A DNA stretch of 20,181 nucleotides from a virus, in IMG/VR virus record IMGVR_UViG_3300042731_002655, positions 1 through 20,181 of that record, one strand, 5' to 3'. A program made the translations under genes and the position numbers. Positions 2 through 18,455 of the stretch are shown one piece after another (the first letter of the stretch is position 1; each line of letters starts with the position of its first letter). Below the pieces are notes generated by a model that saw nothing but the letters and a program-made list of their open reading frames with translations, had not been told where the DNA came from and ran no database searches.

Positions 2-2521
2 GTGTGTCCCAGCGGGATCTCGACCGGTCGGGCGCAGCTCCATTTCACGGCGGAAGACGCCATTTGCACCGATTCCGGGCCGGGAGCGACCCAGCACGAC
101 TACCTGGACGCCAACTGTCAGGTCATGGACGGTTTCATCGTCCCCGGCACCGTCGAGGTGACGGCTCCCACGGCCACGGGGACCCAGACCGTTTACGATG
201 ACGGGTTCGGGGGCTGGAGAACGGCTCCGGACGGGGGTGGGCTGGCGGTGGTCGGGACCCTCAATTATCGGACCGGCGCATGGGACATTACGTTCCCTTC
301 CAGCGTCCCTGCCAACTCCCAGATCGACGCCGAATACCAGTTCGTGGTCTCCGACATGGGGTCGGGAGCCCAGGCCGGGACGGGCGGTTCCTACATCCCC
401 ACCGACGTGGTCTGCACCAACGCCACGGGCGGAGCGGCCCAGATCGACTCCGCCGACGCCAACTGCGCTCCCATCGCCACCCTCCCCGTCGTACCCAGCA
501 CGGTGCGCTTCGTGTGCTCCGACGTGGCAGGCTCGCCCGAAACCATCTACGACGACGGGGTGGGGGGTCTCTGCACCCTCCGGCGAGGCGATCCGAACTC
601 CGTGGACATCGTGGGGACCATCGACTACAGCACCGGGGCCTGGGATATTACCTGGAGCGGTCTCGTGACGGCCACGGCTACGATCACGGCCTCCTACGTG
701 GCCGTGGCGGACAGCCCCAACGTCCACGATCTGCGAGGGTCCGCCGCCAGGATGGACACCTCCGACGCCGCCACCGGGAACGACTTCCTCACGGAGAGCT
801 GGCTGAACTACGTGACCGGGGCCTTCCAGGTCAAGTTCTCCCTCTCCGCGACCAGGGATCTGGTCAACAACGCCACGGTCTACGCCGTCTACCAGCATGG
901 GGAGCTCCTGGGCTGGGGGGACGGAACGGCGGTGGCCTTCAGCGGGGACGTGGCCGACGCACCCATCCGGAGGGAGAACAACCGGGAGCTGGCGTTCCAG
1001 GGGGGTCAGCAGGCCCTTCCGGGGGCAGGCGAGGCGCAGATGGCCTTCGCCACCCTGGGGCCTCCGGACGCCTGGACCCAGAACGTGGGCGGCGGAGCCT
1101 CCGCCAACCCCATCGACTTCGCCAACGGGGACACGGCCATCCAGTGGTCGGGGGCTCCCTACAACGGTGAGGCCGTCTTCGTGGTGGTCGAAGAGGTGGT
1201 GGGTCACGTGACCTGTCAGTTCTGCGGGGACATCGGGAACGAGAGGGCCACGATCACGGACGGGATCTACGCCATCATGGACGTGTCTCCATCCGACGCC
1301 ACCAAGCTGCGGTTCCGGGTCATGTTCAACGACGGAACCGGCTCCGTGGCCGTGGAATCATGGGATCTCCTGGACGACTTCGAGGACATGGTGGACACGG
1401 TGAACGCCACGGACGGCACGGGGTCCGAACTCGTGACCATCGAGGACGCCGGGACCGGCGCGGAGCCCGATCCGGTGACCCAGAACCTGGGCATGGACGG
1501 GGCTTTCACGACCTCCGACGTGGTGGGAACCAAGGTGGGTCCGACCTACACCGGGATGCAACTGTACTCGAATCCGGACACCGTCCTGGTGGACGTGCTC
1601 ACGGCTCCGGGCCAGTGGCACCGTCAGGTCCAGGATGCCGGGATCGCCCTCTGCGAGTCCCAGGGTCGGAGAGCCCTCTGGGTTTACTCCCTGCCCGATT
1701 TCACCCCTCCGGACCAGATGAACGACGACCTTCCGGGCGTCCTGTCCACCGATTTGGCCCAGGATGCGGTGGATTTCGTCAACGGGTCCTACAACGCCGC
1801 CATCGCGGGTGGCGTGGCCCGTCCCTCCGTCAAGGTCCCCTACCCGCCCCTGGCCAGCGTGAACAGCGACTACGCCACGTGCCACGCCTTCTGGCTCAAC
1901 TACTTCGACCAGTACACCAACGAGGACGTGTGGGAGGGACCGGAGGGCGATTTCACCCAGCTCCTCGCCAAGACGGACCGGGATCAGGAGCGGTGGTTCC
2001 CCGTGGCGGGACTCAACAGGGGCCAGATCCAGGACGTGAACACGATCCGGTACAGCCCGGACGTGGCGGACAGGACCCTCATGTACAATCTCGTGGGGAA
2101 CCTCCAGAACGTGGTGAATCCCATTCGCTCGAAGGTCGGGGTGGGGATCTGGATCGACGGCCAGCGGACCATGTACCGGCAGTCCTCCGTGAGGGATCGG
2201 AACAACGTCCGGCTCCTCCTCAACCGGTTGGAGAACCTGCTGGAGATCGCCAATTTCCGGTACGAACACGAACTGAACGATCCCATCCTCTGGAGGCAGA
2301 TCGAGGCCACGGGACGCCTGATCATCCGGCCCATGATCGCCCGGAGGGGGCTGACCGACGCCAGGGTGGTGTGCGATTCGTCCACGAACACCCCGGACGT
2401 GATCGCCCAGAACAAGGCTGTGGCGAAGCTGTACATCCAGCCCACGCTGTCGGCGGAGATCATCGAGTACAACATCGTGATCGTGCCCACGGGGGTCACC
2501 TTCGAGGAGGTTTTGGCGTAA
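2..2521 (+). CDS. Contractile tail sheath protein (5' end outside window)
   Basis: Forms the contractile outer sheath around the tail tube. The reading frame is already open at the window edge, so the GTG at position 2 is probably not the true start; 839 residues are visible. The C-terminal third carries the sheath family signature: WFPVAGLNRG at about residues 665-674, then a GIWIDGQRTMYRQ stretch and a NVRLLLNRLE helix at about 713-745, followed by the usual final domain ending in a beta-strand-rich tail. The N-terminal ~300 residues are unusual: two tandem ~116-residue units plus a weaker third, each ending in a YDDGxGG...YxTGAWDIT module also found in baseplate proteins here. These are presumably surface-exposed additions to the sheath. 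The tube gene follows 45 bases downstream. Family assignment is firm; the role of the N-terminal units is inference. Confidence 0.9.
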   Translation: MCPSGISTGRAQLHFTAEDAICTDSGPGATQHDYLDANCQVMDGFIVPGTVEVTAPTATGTQTVYDDGFGGWRTAPDGGGLAVVGTLNYRTGAWDITFPSSVPANSQIDAEYQFVVSDMGSGAQAGTGGSYIPTDVVCTNATGGAAQIDSADANCAPIATLPVVPSTVRFVCSDVAGSPETIYDDGVGGLCTLRRGDPNSVDIVGTIDYSTGAWDITWSGLVTATATITASYVAVADSPNVHDLRGSAARMDTSDAATGNDFLTESWLNYVTGAFQVKFSLSATRDLVNNATVYAVYQHGELLGWGDGTAVAFSGDVADAPIRRENNRELAFQGGQQALPGAGEAQMAFATLGPPDAWTQNVGGGASANPIDFANGDTAIQWSGAPYNGEAVFVVVEEVVGHVTCQFCGDIGNERATITDGIYAIMDVSPSDATKLRFRVMFNDGTGSVAVESWDLLDDFEDMVDTVNATDGTGSELVTIEDAGTGAEPDPVTQNLGMDGAFTTSDVVGTKVGPTYTGMQLYSNPDTVLVDVLTAPGQWHRQVQDAGIALCESQGRRALWVYSLPDFTPPDQMNDDLPGVLSTDLAQDAVDFVNGSYNAAIAGGVARPSVKVPYPPLASVNSDYATCHAFWLNYFDQYTNEDVWEGPEGDFTQLLAKTDRDQERWFPVAGLNRGQIQDVNTIRYSPDVADRTLMYNLVGNLQNVVNPIRSKVGVGIWIDGQRTMYRQSSVRDRNNVRLLLNRLENLLEIANFRYEHELNDPILWRQIEATGRLIIRPMIARRGLTDARVVCDSSTNTPDVIAQNKAVAKLYIQPTLSAEIIEYNIVIVPTGVTFEEVLA
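188..337 (+). repeat. DDG module copy 1 (sheath)
   Basis: Sheath residues 63-112: TVYDDGFGG, a spacer, GTLNYRTGAWDITF, then a strand ending in AEY. It is 50 codons long, the same as the best copy in the gpJ-like protein. Confidence 0.8.
542..697 (+). repeat. DDG module copy 2 (sheath)
   Basis: Sheath residues 181-232: TIYDDGVGG, spacer, GTIDYSTGAWDITW, then a strand ending in ASY. Confidence 0.8.
785..892 (+). repeat. DDG module copy 3, degenerate (sheath)
   Basis: The DDG part is lost, but WLNYVTGAFQVKF followed by a strand ending in YAVY matches the second half of copies 1 and 2. Confidence 0.5.
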
Positions 2522-2548: not shown

Positions 2549-2565
2549 TTGAGGAGGATTTGCAG

Positions 2566-3099
2566 ATGGCACTGACCTACCGGTATAACGCCGACGCTTT
2601 GGCCCAGGCGCAGGGGAAGTACAATCCCCAGAAGAAAAACATGGCCATGTTGGAGCTGCACGTGGACGGGCTCGTGCCGGGAGCCCAAGAAATCCTCATG
2701 CTTTCGCTCCAATCGGTGACCATTCCGGGCTACTCCGTGGCCAGGGGGGAGATTCAATTCCTCAACGGGACGGTGTTCTATCCGTCCAGGCCGGAACCTC
2801 TCCCCGAAATGACGGTCACCTTCCGGGAGTACCACGACGTAGGAAACCGGGAGATCCTGGAAAAGCTGTTCTACAAGGTCTACGACCCCAGGACGGGGGC
2901 CATGGGAATTCCGGCGAACGTCAAGTCCCAGGCCACTCTGGTTCTCCTGCGGGAAGATGATTCGGGCGGCAGGCCCTATCTTCTGGACGGGGTGTGGCCC
3001 ATGAACGCTCCCGGCATCGAACACGACATGGGGGACGGTGAACAGATGATCCACGAGATCCGGTTCTCCGTGGACTTCATCACCGGTCGGGATCTCTAA
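2566..3099 (+). CDS. Tail tube protein (T4 gp19-like)
   Basis: Builds the inner tube through which DNA passes. At 177 residues it has the usual length for the family. It shows the expected pattern: an N-terminal strand pair, a PGYSVARGEIQF region, a central TFREYHDVGNREILEKLFYKVYD segment split by a helix, and a C-terminal WPMNAPGIEHDM...IRFSVDFI strand set resembling the end of T4 gp19-like tubes. Its position directly after the sheath supports the call. I chose ATG 2566 because GAGGAGG ends 8 bases upstream; an in-frame TTG at 2560 is too close to that site. A shared inverted repeat precedes it and a possible stem-loop spans its stop codon. Confidence 0.85.
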   Translation: MALTYRYNADALAQAQGKYNPQKKNMAMLELHVDGLVPGAQEILMLSLQSVTIPGYSVARGEIQFLNGTVFYPSRPEPLPEMTVTFREYHDVGNREILEKLFYKVYDPRTGAMGIPANVKSQATLVLLREDDSGGRPYLLDGVWPMNAPGIEHDMGDGEQMIHEIRFSVDFITGRDL

Positions 3100-3158: not shown

Positions 3159-4151
3159 ATGGGCGAGGCACAAGGAACGTCCAGACTCAAGTCATGGCAA
3201 GCACGAGACCGTCTTACAAGGCAATACAAGCTGCCCTCATGCGGGTGGCTCTACGACGATCTTCTTCCTTCCGGCATCGTGACCATGTCCTCCATCCGGG
3301 GGGAGGACGAAGAAATCATTGGCGGGGCCGGGGAGGGTGCCCAAGCCCTCCCCGTGCTTCGTGACAAGATCGAGCAACTGGTCAACTTCGGGAAACTGCC
3401 CTACAAGCGACTCCTTTTCTCCGATTGGCTGGCCACGCTGTTCAACTTCTTCGCCTTTTCCTACGGCGGGGACATGGCGGCGAATGTCAAGTGTCCCCAC
3501 TGCAAGCGGTTGCCACTCAAGCCCTACCTCCTCATGCTGGAGGGCCTTCCCTGCTACGTCTACGAAGACGATCCCACCCTCCAGAAGGAGAAGTTCAAGG
3601 AGCCCTTCCGAACTGCGGCTCTCCCGCCCTGGGATGACGTGCTCGATTTCCGCCTCCTCCGGATGCAGGACCACCTCGAAACGGAGGCGTATCACAAGAA
3701 GGGCGTGTCCATGGGGAAGGAGGGGAATTTCACCAGCTCCTATGCCATGGCCAAGCATATCGTGGCTATCAACGATGAGGAGGTCAGCACGTTCGAGGCC
3801 CTGGATTGGGTCCGGAACGCCACCACGGGCAAGACCACAAGGGCCTTTCGGGAGGAGATCAGCCTCCGGGAGCCGGGGTATTCCTTGAATTTCGAGGTGA
3901 ATTGCAGTTGGCGCGACTGCGGGGCTCCCTTCAGCATCCGTATGCCGGAGGACGGCTCCTTTTTTCGTCAATCGGATTCCTACACTCGAAAGTTTAAGAG
4001 GCCAACGGTTCTCGTTGATGAATCCGAACCAGGGGGGTCTGAGCTACCGGGATTGGGCGGCGATGACTCCCTGGCAGAGACAGGACTACGTGATTCGGAT
4101 GAATCAGTATCAAAGGAAGAAGGAGGCGGAGGAGAGGCAGCGAAGGAATAG
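3159..4151 (+). CDS. T4-family baseplate hub assembly chaperone-like protein
   Basis: Likely an assembly factor for the tail or baseplate. The opening LPSCGWLYDDLLPSG...V.M.S.RG, the following KIEQLVNF...LLFSDWLATLFNFFAFSYGGDM and the zinc-ribbon cysteines (C112-x-x-C115 in CPHC, C249-x4-C254 in NCSWRDCG) fit the T4 baseplate assembly chaperone family (gp26-type, Pfam T4_baseplate). It lies between tube and tape measure, where other tailed phages encode frameshifted tail assembly chaperones. The ribosome binding site GAGGAG (3146) is well placed for ATG 3159. The last 37 codons are acidic and low-complexity with poor codon choice (15 of 37 end in G/C), because another frame there seems to be the selected one. 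Family is moderately sure, exact role less so. Confidence 0.7.
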   Translation: MGEAQGTSRLKSWQARDRLTRQYKLPSCGWLYDDLLPSGIVTMSSIRGEDEEIIGGAGEGAQALPVLRDKIEQLVNFGKLPYKRLLFSDWLATLFNFFAFSYGGDMAANVKCPHCKRLPLKPYLLMLEGLPCYVYEDDPTLQKEKFKEPFRTAALPPWDDVLDFRLLRMQDHLETEAYHKKGVSMGKEGNFTSSYAMAKHIVAINDEEVSTFEALDWVRNATTGKTTRAFREEISLREPGYSLNFEVNCSWRDCGAPFSIRMPEDGSFFRQSDSYTRKFKRPTVLVDESEPGGSELPGLGGDDSLAETGLRDSDESVSKEEGGGGEAAKE

Positions 4152-4158
4152 GCGGTAG
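4018..4158 (+). CDS. Overlapping alternative-frame C-terminus of the chaperone (frameshift product or small ORF)
   Basis: Lies inside the 3' end of the chaperone gene in the +1 (= -2) frame and ends just before the tape measure start. From ATG 4018 it would give 46 residues; the convincing part begins after GGT at 4036 (LSYRDWAAMTPWQRQDY, then a strongly basic QRKKEAEERQRRNRR end). Of the 39 codons after that point 30 end in G or C, as in real genes here, against 15 of 37 in the chaperone frame. The frame is open back to 3889, so it could be reached by frameshifting rather than by its own start; no good ribosome binding site precedes ATG 4018 (AAGAGG is 16 bases away). A shifted product would be about 332-333 residues, nearly the same length as the unshifted 330. 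Expression is inferred, not shown. Confidence 0.6.
   Translation: MNPNQGGLSYRDWAAMTPWQRQDYVIRMNQYQRKKEAEERQRRNRR
4032..4037 (+). promoter_or_regulatory. Candidate frameshift site (six G)
   Basis: A run GGGGGG falls exactly on two in-frame glycine codons of the chaperone (GGG GGG TCT). A -2 slip or a +1 slip here enters the well-formed overlapping frame. From memory, phage Mu uses a -2 shift on a G-rich run in its tail assembly genes. No stimulatory structure was established. Confidence 0.45.
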
Positions 4159-4160
4159 AA

Positions 4161-5981
4161 ATGGCTGATAGGTCGAACGTGGAAAGATTCGCCTACATTT
4201 ACGACATCGTAGATGAAGGCGTTCACAAGGCCATCAAGAAGACGGATGACGCCATCGACACCTTTGTGACCGTCACAACGAAGGGCCTGACGACCGTCTT
4301 CAACCTGACCCAGCAGACCATCAGTGGCTTCCTCAAGTTCAGCAGCAAGAAGGTGCTGAACTCCTTCAAGGCCGTTTTGTTCCCCATCCAGGAGATCCGG
4401 GACGGCGTGAGCGGGGCCAGGAAAGCGGCCAAGGGGCTGGTCGAGAAGATGGCCCAGGGAGCCAAGAGTACCTTCCAGTTCGAGAACCGGCTGTCGGGGA
4501 TCTTCGGGATTCTGAAGACCATAGCGAAAATAGGAGGGTTAGGGGTCCTCCTTGGACCATTTATCATCCTGATTAAGCCGTTCCTACAACTGGTGTCTGT
4601 AATTACGGACACTCTCCAGCCTGCGCTGGACACCATCACGGAGACTTTGAAAGGTGCCTTCGCCCCAGTTGCAGCGGCACTACATCGGTTGTCTCTCAAA
4701 CTCCTGCCTCACCTCATGCGGGTGATCGCTCCCATCGTGGTCTTCATGGTCAGGGCTGTAGAGGAGATCGGTAAGTTCTTCGAGGAGGGTCATTTCGAGG
4801 GGATGCTGGGCATCTTCGATGAGCTGGTACCCCTTATTGATGAAATGATCGACTCCTTCATCCGGGACTTCCTCAAGCCCGTGGGAGGGGTTCTTTTCCG
4901 GACGGTGATTAAACTGTTCCAGAGCCTCGTGAAATTCGCCGTTGAGTTCGTCAAGACCGTGGCTCCCTATATGCCCAGGTTCTTCAACATCCTCCAGAAG
5001 GTGGCTAACCTGATAATCACAACCCTTGGGGACGCTCTGGATAATCTGTTGCTGGAGATGACGAAACAGCTCCCGAATCTTGTGCCCCTAATTATCAAAA
5101 TGCTCAACACCTTCGAGGCCATGATCCCGCACTTGGAGAAGCTTCTGCCCCTGTTCACGGAGCTCATCGTAACGGTCCTGGCCAAGGTGCTCACCCCAGC
5201 GGGAATCGCCATCCTGGACGCCATGCTCAATTTACTTCTCAAGATCCTCCAACACACGGAGCCCCTGATAGACGACATGGCCTTTCTCCTGGAACAGTTC
5301 AACAAGTGGCTGTCGGAGAACAGTGCCAGCGTGGACGAATGGTCGGAAGGTCTCAAGATCCTGGGTGAGATCATCGTGGAATGGTTCAAAGACGCGAAGG
5401 TGGCGGCGGAGGAACTGGTCCGTATCGTGGGGGAGTGGATTGAAGATCTGAAAGAAGTCCTCAAGTTCCTGGGTCTGATCGAAGACAAGACCGCAGAACA
5501 GGAGAAACGGGACAAGGCCCATTGGGATGCGGCTCAGGGCGATCTCGCCGGTCTCAGAAAACGGGAAGAACTGGCTCTCCAAAACGCAGTCAAGGAGTTC
5601 CAAAGGGCCGGAAAGTCGGAAGCGTTCATTAAGGCTTTCGAGTCCAGGAGAAAGGCGGAGATCGAGTTCTTCCTGGTTCAACAGGCCGCACGGATAGCCG
5701 CTCGCCAAGAGGGTGGCCATATCGTCAAGCCGGAGCTTGCCGTGGTGGGTGAGGCGGGGCCTGAGTGGATCGTGCCGGACACGCCGGAAGGACTCATGGA
5801 GTACCTGCCCCAGATGGTCAGGAGTGTTATGAAGAAGGGTCCGATGGGAGCCGTGGGGCCTGCTGCGGTCGGGGCCGGGGCGAATGAACTGTTGGCGGAA
5901 ATCCTGGAAATCCTCAAGCGGATTGCTGAGATGATGGCTGAAAACGAGGGTGACGAATTCGGCTTGCCGGAGGTGCTGTAA
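4161..5981 (+). CDS. Tape measure protein
   Basis: Sets tail length and occupies the tube lumen before DNA ejection. The 606 residues are almost entirely predicted helix. A hydrophobic stretch rich in G, L and I lies at about residues 112-145, long amphipathic helices follow, a highly charged helix covers about 465-515, and the C-terminus has the motif GGHIVKPELAVVGEAGPE at about 517-534, typical of tape measure C-termini. At the usual ~0.15 nm per residue the tail would be roughly 90 nm, if the full protein counts. It starts 2 bases after the overlapping frame's stop and has only a weak ribosome binding site, so translation may depend on the upstream chaperone. Its stop overlaps the next start (TAATG). 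Confidence 0.9.
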   Translation: MADRSNVERFAYIYDIVDEGVHKAIKKTDDAIDTFVTVTTKGLTTVFNLTQQTISGFLKFSSKKVLNSFKAVLFPIQEIRDGVSGARKAAKGLVEKMAQGAKSTFQFENRLSGIFGILKTIAKIGGLGVLLGPFIILIKPFLQLVSVITDTLQPALDTITETLKGAFAPVAAALHRLSLKLLPHLMRVIAPIVVFMVRAVEEIGKFFEEGHFEGMLGIFDELVPLIDEMIDSFIRDFLKPVGGVLFRTVIKLFQSLVKFAVEFVKTVAPYMPRFFNILQKVANLIITTLGDALDNLLLEMTKQLPNLVPLIIKMLNTFEAMIPHLEKLLPLFTELIVTVLAKVLTPAGIAILDAMLNLLLKILQHTEPLIDDMAFLLEQFNKWLSENSASVDEWSEGLKILGEIIVEWFKDAKVAAEELVRIVGEWIEDLKEVLKFLGLIEDKTAEQEKRDKAHWDAAQGDLAGLRKREELALQNAVKEFQRAGKSEAFIKAFESRRKAEIEFFLVQQAARIAARQEGGHIVKPELAVVGEAGPEWIVPDTPEGLMEYLPQMVRSVMKKGPMGAVGPAAVGAGANELLAEILEILKRIAEMMAENEGDEFGLPEVL

Positions 5982-14957: not shown

Positions 14958-16562
14958 ATGGTAGAAATACCTCCAAAAATGAAGAAACGGCAGATCACTC
15001 TTGGATCTGCCTTGGACGGGTTCGAGCCCACCCCTCAGTCTCCGGTATCAGCCTCTCTCGACTTGGAAGCGGGGATCTACTTCGCTGAGTCGAACAACGA
15101 GATCCTGATCATCGCGGCTCAGGTCGCGGGTCCTTTCCCTTCGGTTTCTGTCCCAGGTCGGGGGCGGTGGGATCTGGTTTACTTGGACGAAACGGGGGCT
15201 GTCCAGGTCGAGTTGGGGGCCGAACAGATCCTCCCTGTGGCGGATTACACGGGGGCTCCCGGCTTCGGGACTTCCACCACTGCTAACAAGGTGTTGCCGA
15301 TTGCCTACATCTACGTGGATGAATCCGGAGCCGTGTCGGTGGACGACGCCGACGTGACGGATCTACGGCCCTACATAGGGAGGGACGAACGGGGGGCCGT
15401 GGGGGACCTCGCCACGGACGACAGCACCGGAGCTGGTGGTATTCTTGGGACGAATTGGAAGGGGGTCCCCATCGACCACCGGCATCCGCCCAACGTGGAC
15501 GCCATCAACCCAGCGGGAATCGACACGACGGCCTCTCCGGGCGTCCTGGACATATACGCCAGGAGGGACCATGTCCATATCCTGGGAGCCAACGCCAGGA
15601 CCCAGGTGAATACCCCACTGGCTCTTGCTTCGACGTGCTTGTGGGGGCCTCGAAGCAACAAGACGGCAGGGAACCCCAACGTCCGGATCTGGGTTCTGGC
15701 CCAGTTTGCCGGGAGAGCCCAGAACGCCCCGGATGACGACCCTTACTGGTTTCTGATCGGTCCCTCTTTCCTTCATACCAAGGAGTTCCTTACGCTCTTT
15801 CCCATCGACCTGATTGGGAGCCCAGGGAACATCGGGCCGGGGCAGGCGGATGACACAAACCCCACGGGGGCTGCTTCGGTGAACTCGTTTCTCTACGTCT
15901 ACGTCATCGGGGTTCCCAACACTTCCACCTACGCCCTGGTCTACTCGACCAATCCTCCGAACATCGGGCCTGGGCTGACGGATGCCTCTTTCACGGGTCC
16001 CGGATACTCCTACTGGAGGTTCGTGACCTGTATCGAGATGAGTGCCACTTCCGGCCTCGCGGTTGCTGCCCGGAAAAGAGGGGACACGGTGGTCAAAGAG
16101 TGGCCCACGGGAACCCTGATCGGCATCGGGAATCGGGCCGGACACTCCGAAGACCTCTACTGGGCGACGGGAGCCGGGAGCATCACCGTCCAGCTCAACG
16201 AGCACGTTTCCCCTGCGGGGTATCTCGTTTTTATGAACTGGCAACTGGTGGCCAGGGCCGGGGCGGTGACCAACGCCAGACTGTACGTCCGGCAGGTAGC
16301 GGGGGGCGTTCCGGACATGGGCAGGCAGGATCAGCCCGATGCCCTTGTGGGGGTGGGTTCCGACGCCATTAAGACCCTTTTCGTGTCGAACCAGAATACC
16401 ACGCAGGACCAGTACGTGGCGGACGGGTTCTGGATGCCGCTGGACATCGGACACCAAATCAACATCGAGATGCCCGTGACCATCGACGGGGGAGGAGCGG
16501 CCCAGGTGGTGGCCTACAAGGAAGTCCCTGACGGAAGGTTCGTGGATCACGCCTTTACATAG
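14958..16562 (+). CDS. Tail fibre-type protein, paralogue A
   Basis: A 534-residue protein homologous over its whole length to the gene at 16884-18455. The N-terminal ~150 residues (GRWDLVYLDETGAVQVE..., LPIAYIYVDESGAV, DVTDLRPYIG) form an attachment-type domain seen in many phage fibres. Then come a DDSTGAGGILGT linker and two HxH motifs (H174/H176 in DHRHPPNVDA and H205/H207 in RRDHVHIL), reminiscent of metal-coordinating motifs in trimeric fibres. The C-terminal ~300 residues are a beta-rich domain with SFLYVYVIG, VYSTNPPNIGPGL and NEHVSPAGYLVFMNW. AAGGAG overlaps the upstream stop. Receptor binding is inference from context. Confidence 0.65.
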   Translation: MVEIPPKMKKRQITLGSALDGFEPTPQSPVSASLDLEAGIYFAESNNEILIIAAQVAGPFPSVSVPGRGRWDLVYLDETGAVQVELGAEQILPVADYTGAPGFGTSTTANKVLPIAYIYVDESGAVSVDDADVTDLRPYIGRDERGAVGDLATDDSTGAGGILGTNWKGVPIDHRHPPNVDAINPAGIDTTASPGVLDIYARRDHVHILGANARTQVNTPLALASTCLWGPRSNKTAGNPNVRIWVLAQFAGRAQNAPDDDPYWFLIGPSFLHTKEFLTLFPIDLIGSPGNIGPGQADDTNPTGAASVNSFLYVYVIGVPNTSTYALVYSTNPPNIGPGLTDASFTGPGYSYWRFVTCIEMSATSGLAVAARKRGDTVVKEWPTGTLIGIGNRAGHSEDLYWATGAGSITVQLNEHVSPAGYLVFMNWQLVARAGAVTNARLYVRQVAGGVPDMGRQDQPDALVGVGSDAIKTLFVSNQNTTQDQYVADGFWMPLDIGHQINIEMPVTIDGGGAAQVVAYKEVPDGRFVDHAFT

Positions 16563-16572
16563 AGGGAAGCTG

Positions 16573-16872
16573 ATGGGTGAAAAAGAGAAGAAAAAAGAGC
16601 TAACGGGTGAGGATCTGAGGGCGTTCGAGGAGAAGTGCGCCCAGCCGGGGTACCCTGGGACCATGGAGGAGAGGCTGGCGAAGCGTCAGGCTATCATCGA
16701 CGCCAAGACCAAACAGGCCAAGATGCAACTGGCTTTGAAGAAGTCGGCGGAGGAGGAGAGGAAGAAGAAGGTGCTGGTGGTGCAGGATCGACAGAAGAAG
16801 ATCCTCCGGAAGGAGATCGAGGCGGAGATCCGGAAGGAAATCGAGGCGGAAGCCAAAGAAACGCCTGAGTAA
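16573..16872 (+). CDS. Small charged coiled-coil protein between the fibre paralogues
   Basis: A 99-residue protein rich in Lys and Glu (about half of all residues charged). Only the centre (CAQPGYPGTMEERL, about 22-35) is likely not helical; the rest fits one long helix or coiled coil, ending in a duplicated RKEIEAE unit. No known family is recognised. Lying exactly between the two fibre paralogues, it could be a fibre assembly factor or a linking protein; this is inference. GAGGGA precedes ATG by 5 bases. Confidence 0.6.
   Translation: MGEKEKKKELTGEDLRAFEEKCAQPGYPGTMEERLAKRQAIIDAKTKQAKMQLALKKSAEEERKKKVLVVQDRQKKILRKEIEAEIRKEIEAEAKETPE
16807..16854 (+). repeat. Tandem 24-base repeat (two copies)
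   Basis: Two adjacent 24-base units, 20 of 24 positions identical, encode RKEIEAEI and RKEIEAEA at the C-terminus of the coiled-coil protein. This suggests recent extension by slippage. Confidence 0.75.
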
Positions 16873-16883
16873 GGAATCGCGGC

Positions 16884-18455
16884 ATGGCATTGTCCCGAAT
16901 CAAAGAACGCCAGCTCGCCCTGAGCGCAGGGCTCGTGGGGTTCAAGCCCCAGCCCAGATCTCCGGAAGATGACCGGATCGAGGTCCAAGGAGGGTGGTAT
17001 GACGACGTGGGGGAGAACACCATCGCCCTCCAGAGTCTCCAGACCACGGGTATCTTCGCTCCGGTCCTGGCGGGCCAGGGTCGGTGGGATCTGGTTTACA
17101 TTGACAACACAGGCACGGTGGGTGTCGAAGCTGGCGTGGCCCAGGTGCTTCCCGTTCCCGCCTACACCGGGGCTCCTGGGATCGCCGGACCCACCACGGC
17201 TCCGAACATGATCCCCATCGCCTACGTCTACGTGGACGAAACCGTGACGGTGATCGTGGACGAATACGACATCACTGACCTTCGGGATTGGTTCGGGAAA
17301 TACACCCGTGGGGTGGTGGGGAATCTGGCCTCCGACGACGGGACCGGGGCCGGGGGTATCCTGGGCACGATCTGGTCCGCGATCCCGGCGGATCACCGGC
17401 ACCCTCCGAACGTGGATGCGGTCAATCCGGCCCAGGTTTTGGGGGTCCTTGGAGGGGAGAATCCAGGCGTTTCGGACATATACGCAAGGAGGGACCATCA
17501 GCACGAGCTGGCCGTAGGTGCGGCAGCAGTGGCCTCTCCCTACAGTAAGTCCGTGACCTGTCTCTGGGCTCCGGACGACAACACGGGAGGCGCGAATCCG
17601 GGTGTAAAGAAATGGAACTTGCACCACTTCCAGGGAATGGCGGACAACAATTCTGCCTTCTATTTCAACCTCCCCAGAGCCTCGAAGCTCCTGCTGACCA
17701 TCTTCCCGGTGGACGGCGGGGGCACGGGAAACAATATCGGCCCAGGGGGAGCCGACGACACCGATCCGGTTGCTGCGGCGGTTACCAACTCCTTCCTGTA
17801 CGTCTACATCATCGGTCAGACCGGGACGCCAGGGGTTTACTCCATCGTTTACTCGACAAACGCACCTACCACCGGACCGGGACTGACCGACCCCGCCTTC
17901 GGGGGTACCTACGACACCTGGAGATGGGTGACCTGCATCGAAATGTCGTTGACGGCCCAGCTTCCCGTTGCGGCCCGGAAGATCGGGAACATCGTGATCA
18001 AGGAGTGGTACACGGGGACACCTACGTCTGGGGTGAATCGGGCTCAACATACGGAAGACATCTGGTGGAACGTCCCTTTCCCTGGGGCTGTGGTCAGCCT
18101 TGCCGAACACGTTTCCCCCATGGCCATCGCCGTTTTTATCAACTGGTGGGTCAAGATCGACGGAGGAGGGGCACCAGGGTCCATCACCCTGGAGCTGACG
18201 ACGGCCCCAAATACCCCTCTGGGTTCCCAGGACACACCGGACGCTCTTTTATACGACTACAACAAGCTCGTTATCCAAACCTCAGAGGCAGCAGACGTGC
18301 AGCCAAAGTACAACAACGACGGTCTCTGGATGCCTGTGAATAACGCTCGACAAATCTTCGTCCAAGTGGGTATCACGGGGATCGGGGAGGCCGGAGGCGT
18401 CGTTGTGGCCTACGAGGAGCATAACCTGGACGACATTACCAACATCGTCTGGTAG
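16884..18455 (+). CDS. Tail fibre-type protein, paralogue B
   Basis: A 523-residue paralogue of the protein at 14958-16562, matching it from GRWDLVYIDNTG (about 68) to the end (GLWMPVNNARQI, VVAYEEHN). The second HxH motif falls at the same residue numbers (H205/H207, RRDHQHEL); the first is H171/H173 (DHRHPPNVDA). The segments around EHVSP, CIEMS and VYSTN are nearly unchanged, while the N-terminal ~60 residues and loop regions differ, as expected for fibres with different targets or positions. AAGGA lies 8 bases before ATG and overlaps the upstream stop. Confidence 0.65.
   Translation: MALSRIKERQLALSAGLVGFKPQPRSPEDDRIEVQGGWYDDVGENTIALQSLQTTGIFAPVLAGQGRWDLVYIDNTGTVGVEAGVAQVLPVPAYTGAPGIAGPTTAPNMIPIAYVYVDETVTVIVDEYDITDLRDWFGKYTRGVVGNLASDDGTGAGGILGTIWSAIPADHRHPPNVDAVNPAQVLGVLGGENPGVSDIYARRDHQHELAVGAAAVASPYSKSVTCLWAPDDNTGGANPGVKKWNLHHFQGMADNNSAFYFNLPRASKLLLTIFPVDGGGTGNNIGPGGADDTDPVAAAVTNSFLYVYIIGQTGTPGVYSIVYSTNAPTTGPGLTDPAFGGTYDTWRWVTCIEMSLTAQLPVAARKIGNIVIKEWYTGTPTSGVNRAQHTEDIWWNVPFPGAVVSLAEHVSPMAIAVFINWWVKIDGGGAPGSITLELTTAPNTPLGSQDTPDALLYDYNKLVIQTSEAADVQPKYNNDGLWMPVNNARQIFVQVGITGIGEAGGVVVAYEEHNLDDITNIVW

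What the first reader, a model, noticed from the sequence alone, without database searches (positions are those of the whole stretch)
3889..4158. Chaperone gene with two overlapping C-terminal coding frames and a G-run slip site
Between tail tube and tape measure, many tailed phages make two chaperones by ribosomal frameshifting. Here the gene in that position looks like the T4 baseplate-chaperone family, yet its last ~120 bases carry a second open frame ending just before the tape measure start. Codons after the GGGGGG run (4032-4037): 30 of 39 end in G/C in the alternative frame versus 15 of 37 in the main frame. The alternative peptide (LSYRDWAAMTPWQRQDY... then a basic tail) looks like folded protein, whereas the main-frame tail is acidic and low-complexity. 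The two products would be nearly equal in length but with opposite charge at the end. I do not recall this arrangement for this family.
Basis: partly seen in the sequence, partly recalled or inferred. Interest (0 to 1): 0.85.

Follow-up and report, generated by a model that had tools for sequence, protein, structure and literature searches.

The report
Tail-chaperone frameshift, at a different site

Summary
The second frame is real and selected, but the proposed slip site is wrong. The gene at 3159-4151, between tail tube and tape measure, is a T4-type tail-assembly chaperone (gp26/gp51, "T4_baseplate"). Its overlapping +1 frame (3967-4158) encodes the gp51-like C-terminal domain. In 16 distinct loci this frame is open from a Phe-Phe motif onwards, while the zero frame ends 4-63 codons after the motif at unconserved places. 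Substitution patterns show the selected frame changing within about -13 to +8 nt of TTT|TTT|CGT (3960-3968). A switch at GGGGGG fits worse by about 11-15 log-likelihood units, and GGGGGG occurs only in the window and one relative. The best reading is +1 frameshifting at UUU_C: the shift codon is TTT in 15/16 loci against 35% usage, and two relatives otherwise using no TTT or CGT in this gene keep TTTTTTCGT. Cyanophages and other T4-like phages appear to shift -1 at the same motif on T_TTT_TTC, and published work already describes frameshifted chaperones there, so this is a +1 variant of a known kind. The acidic, near-equal-length zero-frame tail is a by-product. Not shown: the proteins, shift efficiency, stimulators.

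The parts
3159..4151 (+). Zero-frame chaperone ORF, 330 aa (TAC-N, gp26-like, two Cys pairs)
   Evidence: relatives L002 60%, L006 57%, L015 51%; tblastn to SP-15 4e-7, which matches PF12322 at 4.5e-28
3960..3968 (+). Inferred shift site TTT TTT CGT (F268 F269 R270); +1 slip at UUU_C
   Evidence: changepoint of the selected frame; conserved site in 16 loci; none of the other in-frame TTT_C sites in 13 window genes is TTT_CGT
3967..4158 (+). +1-frame C-terminal domain (TAC-C, gp51-like, 63 aa) with stop TAG 4156-4158; fused product about 332 aa
   Evidence: predicted helical, pLDDT 71
3966..4151 (+). Zero-frame tail after the shift site, acidic; apparently not under amino-acid selection
   Evidence: 2 synonymous: 93 non-synonymous changes before the G-run; length 4-63 codons across relatives; P(tail at least this long by chance) about 0.26
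4032..4037 (+).
4018..4020 (+). In-frame ATG of the +1 frame; considered as an internal start and rejected
   Evidence: absent in L019; selection on the +1 frame extends upstream of it
4161..5981 (+). Tape measure protein, 606 aa
   Evidence: phrog_5493 2e-9 and others
2560..3099 (+). Tail tube protein
   Evidence: phrog_45 6e-9

Best explanation
The gene is a T4-type tail-assembly chaperone expressed as two proteins. Most ribosomes read the zero frame and make TAC-N (gp26-like). A fraction slip +1 at UUU_C inside UUU_UUU_CGU (3960-3968): tRNA-Phe moves from UUU to the overlapping UUC (or UUU) while the A-site codon is slow. They then read 63 codons in the +1 frame and make TAC-NC, which carries the gp51-like helical C-domain. 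By analogy with lambda gpG/gpGT, the shared N-part would coat the tape measure and the C-domain would recruit tail tube subunits. Shown here: the +1 frame is selected from the Phe-Phe motif onwards, the site is conserved, and both domains belong to the gp26/gp51 family. Inferred: the ribosomal slip itself, its +1 rather than -2 direction, its efficiency, and the roles in assembly.
For: All 16 distinct loci have an open +1 frame from the Phe-Phe motif through the C-domain, while the zero frame ends 4-63 codons later. Codon-position changes switch from zero-frame third positions upstream (for L002/L006: 77, 55, 184) to +1-frame third positions (49, 29, 80 summed over six pairs) immediately after the site. 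The maximum-likelihood switch is within about -13 to +8 nt of 3967 for most pair sets, and a switch at G6 is worse by about 11-15 units. In L025 the +1 frame opens only 3 codons before the site and the zero frame stops 5 codons after it; in L054 the figures are 5 and 4. The shift codon is TTT in 15/16 (35% pooled usage, p about 2e-6) and TTT_C in 14/16. L040 and L050 have TTT 0/12 and 0/9 and CGT 0/17 and 0/22 in the gene body, yet TTTTTTCGT at the site. UUU_Ynn is reported as prone to +1 shifting in bacteria (PMC5009743). C-domain versus T4-like gp51 C-domains: hhalign 96%, E 5e-9.
Against: No protein or reporter data. TTT_C also occurs in frame elsewhere (for example TTT CGG at codons 230-231 of the same gene), so the tetranucleotide alone is not sufficient, and no conserved downstream structure was found. 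LIS04 has TTTTTTA and L021 TTTTTCC, which need slippage on the first UUU. A -2 slip on U6 would reach the same frame in most members; L006 (TACTTTC) and GXN1 (TTCTTTC) argue against it. The pairwise counts are not all independent. The window protein itself gives no Pfam hit, so family membership rests on intermediates.
Confidence: 0.87

Rival explanations
1. Frameshift at the GGGGGG run (4032-4037), -2 (as reported for Mu) or +1.
For: The run is in the right phase and conserved in L002.
Against: Absent in L006, L015, L040, L019, L021, L024, L025 and L050. The +1 frame is already selected upstream of it. A switch there fits worse by about 11-15 log-likelihood units.
Confidence: 0.03
2. -2 frameshift on the U6 run at the same Phe-Phe motif (adds one Phe).
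For: TTTTTT is present in 13 of 16 loci and -2 reaches the same frame; -2 is known for Mu (PMC5009743).
Against: L006 (TAC TTT CGT) and GXN1 (TTC TTT CGT) offer poor or no -2 re-pairing but good +1 re-pairing.
Confidence: 0.07
3. The C-domain is a separate small protein started internally at ATG 4018 in the +1 frame.
For: An ATG is present there in the window, L002 and L006. Some annotations list gp51-like ORFs as separate genes.
Against: No well-spaced Shine-Dalgarno (AGAGG about 17 nt upstream). Selection in the +1 frame extends upstream of the ATG to the Phe-Phe motif. The ATG is missing in L019. In T4 the C-domain is covalently part of gp51.
Confidence: 0.03
4. Transcriptional slippage at the T6 run, or a sequencing indel, rather than ribosomal frameshifting.
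For: A homopolymer lies at the site in most loci.
Against: L006 and GXN1 lack the run. Many independent contigs and isolate genomes show the same frame break.
Confidence: 0.03

Closest known systems
T4-like tail-assembly chaperones, gp26/gp51 (PF12322 T4_baseplate, phrog_150/phrog_634; Vladimirov, Gautam and Davidson 2022), two-frame form in cyanophages and Vibrio phage nt-1
   Same: N-domain of the gp26 family, gp51-like C-domain, second frame entered at a Phe-Phe motif at the end of the N-domain, oligo-T site
   Different: Those have the C-domain in the -1 frame on T_TTT_TTC; here the T6C is in the other register (TTT_TTT_C) and the shift is +1. In T4 the short and long forms are separate genes.
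Bacillus phage SP-15, Listeria phage LIS04 and Streptococcus phage GXN1 chaperone loci
   Same: +1 register at the Phe-Phe motif and a C-domain before the tape measure
   Different: Zero frame stops 4-6 codons after the motif; in those records the C-domain is annotated as a separate gene or not at all
Vandenendeviridae chaperone (phage Adele, PMC12846349)
   Same: Short and long chaperone from one locus by a frameshift at an oligo-T motif
   Different: -1 at GTTTTT; homology to this gene not tested
Phage Mu chaperone frameshift
   Same: Frameshift into the +1-phase frame
   Different: Mu uses -2 (PMC5009743); the G-run here is not the site
UUU_C +1 sites: influenza A PA-X (UCC_UUU_CGU) and Yersinia yopN-tyeA (PMC5009743)
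   Same: The UUU_CGU core is identical to the PA-X shift site; UUU_Ynn is +1-prone in bacteria
   Different: Unrelated genes and functions; a resemblance of site only

Membership tests
T4-type tail-assembly chaperone (gp26/gp51) | N-domain homologous to gp26/T4_baseplate | tested here: met
   Window alone gives no Pfam hit; met through SP-15 (tblastn 4e-7; PF12322 4.5e-28), L002 phrog_150 0.0018 and L024 phrog_150 6e-7
T4-type tail-assembly chaperone (gp26/gp51) | Placed in the tail module upstream of the tape measure | tested here: met
   Tail tube 2560-3099 before it, tape measure 4161-5981 after it
T4-type tail-assembly chaperone (gp26/gp51) | C-domain homologous to that of gp51 | tested here: met
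   phrog_634 E 0.0065; hhalign 96%, E 5e-9 to cyanophage, Vibrio and Rhizobium C-domains
T4-type tail-assembly chaperone (gp26/gp51) | Second frame entered at the Phe-Phe motif at the end of the N-domain | tested here: met
   Changepoint at the motif; same motif in cyanophages
T4-type chaperone, -1 subgroup (T_TTT_TTC) | -1 shift on T_TTT_TTC | tested here: not met
   Codon phase is TTT_TTT_C and the C-domain is in the +1 frame; the -1 frame stops within about 12 codons
Mu-type frameshift | -2 shift on a conserved G6 run | tested here: not met
   G6 not conserved; selected frame switches about 70 nt upstream
Programmed ribosomal frameshift | Fused product detected at a set ratio | not testable with these tools
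   Needs mass spectrometry or a reporter
Programmed ribosomal frameshift | Conserved stimulatory RNA structure or SD-like element | tested here: inconclusive
   No significant or shared fold downstream (z from -1.6 to +1.7); upstream elements not tested systematically

The most novel reading that the evidence does not exclude
In one family of phage chaperones the same U6C heptamer, at the same Phe-Phe motif, works in two registers: U_UUU_UUC gives -1 in cyanophage-like members and UUU_UUU_C gives +1 in the window/SP-15-like members. The direction of a programmed frameshift would then have flipped by a one-base change of register while location and product were kept, with the +1 group using a stimulator-poor UUU_CGU site like that of influenza PA-X.
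Probability: 0.5. Interest if true: 0.65.

Novelty: new variant of a known kind. Interest (0 to 1): 0.5.

Why it matters
Phage chaperone frameshifts set the ratio of two proteins needed for correct tail assembly, and they are good natural systems for how ribosomes change frame. This clade offers a clear, evolutionarily conserved +1 site of the simple UUU_C type in phages, with 16 natural variants and a sister group that appears to shift -1 at the same motif, so the rules for direction become directly testable. It also shows that such genes are misannotated (C-domain missing or called a separate gene) and that an eye-catching homopolymer can be a decoy.

Tried and rejected
G6 slip site: rejected by comparison. 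Internal start at ATG 4018: rejected. Downstream hairpin: window and L006 can pair GGAUUCC with the G-run region, but L002 and L015 do not and z-scores are not significant. SD-like GGAGG upstream of the site in the window is missing in L006 and sits at a spacing not expected to stimulate +1 (inspection; own knowledge). Direct Pfam search of the window protein gave nothing. PDB sequence search gave no relative. Host genomes: first scan found nothing; the second gave one short match in a Poribacteria contig without a chaperone ORF around it, regarded as chance. The 39-aa peptide alone was too short for a scan. A TTTC=F reading of the whole gene, meant for a fold of the fused protein, failed because TTT_C occurs in frame upstream too; only the C-domain was folded. 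Vladimirov et al. 2022 could not be read; its content is taken from papers that cite it and from own recollection of the abstract. Literature searches found no report of a +1 site in this family, but only open-licence papers were searched.

Full report
Setting. The window is an IMG/VR virus record of 20,181 bases carrying a contractile-tail module: sheath (2-2521), tube (2560-3099), chaperone (3159-4151), tape measure (4161-5981) and baseplate genes.

Check of the observation. The zero frame (330 aa) and the alternative frame ending at 4158 are as described, and the G/C third-position counts after the G-run are exact. The alternative frame does not start at 3889: a TGA at 3898-3900 interrupts it and it is open from 3901. 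It is the +1 frame (equally -2) of the zero frame. Openness alone is weak evidence: with the zero-frame peptide fixed and the window's codon usage, it stays open in 61% of simulations.

Relatives. Searches of viral contigs gave close relatives L002 (60% identical), L006 (57%), L015 (51%) and L040, and more distant ones L019, L021, L024, L025, L050, L052, L053 and L054. Phage records gave SP-15, LIS04 and GXN1. In all of them the zero frame ends 4-63 codons after a Phe-Phe motif (Tyr-Phe in L006) that follows the second Cys pair. The +1 frame continues from that motif through a C-terminal domain (in the closer relatives P.LE.LR.QRF...SY.DWAAMTPWQR.D) towards the tape measure. The zero-frame tail differs in length and sequence; the window and L040 simply have the longest ones.

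Where the frame changes. Upstream of the motif, differences between relatives pile up at zero-frame third positions (L002/L006: 77, 55, 184). In the 24 codons between the motif and the G-run they pile up at +1-frame third positions (49, 29, 80 over six pairs), with 45 synonymous and 60 non-synonymous codon changes in the +1 frame against 2 and 93 in the zero frame. A changepoint fit puts the switch within about -13 to +8 nt of 3967 for most pair sets. A switch at the G-run is worse by about 11-15 log-likelihood units when the window is included. The position profile was taken from upstream of the same genes and the pairs overlap between sets, so these values are approximate. In L025 and L054 the shift must fall in a short stretch between the opening of the +1 frame and the zero-frame stop, which contains the motif. 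The G-run is found only in the window and L002.

The site. The window reads TCC TTT TTT CGT at 3957-3968. Over 16 distinct loci the shift codon is TTT in 15 (pooled TTT usage in the same genes 35%; p about 2e-6) and TTT is followed by C in 14. L040 and L050 use no TTT (0/12, 0/9) and no CGT (0/17, 0/22) in the rest of the gene yet keep TTTTTTCGT. L006 (TAC TTT CGT) and GXN1 (TTC TTT CGT) allow +1 but hardly -2 re-pairing, which favours +1 at UUU_C. LIS04 (TTTTTTA) and L021 (TTTTTCC) can shift +1 on the first UUU. UUU_Ynn is reported as prone to +1 shifting in bacteria, and UUU_CGU is the core of the influenza PA-X site (PMC5009743). TTT_C also occurs in frame elsewhere, so context must matter; no conserved RNA fold was found.

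Family. SP-15's chaperone matches PF12322 T4_baseplate (4.5e-28) and phrog_150, and the window protein matches SP-15 (4e-7). The C-domain matches phrog_634, the gp51 family, weakly (0.0065), and matches a profile of cyanophage, Vibrio and Rhizobium C-domains clearly (hhalign 96%, E 5e-9). In the seven T4-like members fetched plus Sf-CH11, the N-domain ends in FF (FL in the Rhizobium phage) within a few codons of its stop and the C-domain follows in the -1 frame; T_TTT_TTC is present in all but the Rhizobium phage, which has T_TTT_TTG. A C-domain search finds 613 phage records with such a domain. In T4, gp26 ends right after the FF motif and gp51 carries both parts on its own gene, in line with what papers citing Vladimirov et al. 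2022 report. PA5oct, Atu_ph07 and a 595-kb metagenomic phage also show the -1 register. So the same T6C heptamer appears in two registers in one family, giving -1 or +1.

Function. By analogy with lambda gpG/gpGT (PMC5009743), the short form would bind the tape measure and the C-domain of the long form would recruit tail tube subunits. This is inference. AlphaFold2 gives a helical C-domain with moderate confidence (pLDDT 71).

Verdict. A real overlapping frame and very probably a programmed frameshift, but at 3960-3968 and not at the G-run. It is a +1 variant of the known T4-type chaperone frameshift.

Noticed in passing
L009, L012, L013 (LR756511, Atu_ph07, PA5oct): Jumbo-phage relatives carry the C-domain in the -1 frame at T_TTT_TTC; the records annotate it as a separate small gene or not at all.
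   Followed up: partly
L011 2680-2730 (Mel-JY01) and L010 2640-2700: Here the +1 frame is entered slightly later, around FFWPK-stop and FPTE-stop, so the shift may be at a Pro codon or near the stop rather than at UUU_C.
   Followed up: partly
window 2-2521: The sheath gene is long (at least 839 aa, possibly cut by the window start); only its C-terminal part matches known sheaths, so a large extra N-terminal region is likely.
   Followed up: no
window 14958-18455: Large proteins (534 and 523 aa) downstream of the baseplate genes match no PHROG family at E 0.01.
   Followed up: no
L040 and L041, 690-1682: A second relative whose zero frame stays open almost to the end of the +1 frame (63 codons), with a quite different tail sequence, as expected of a by-product.
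   Followed up: yes
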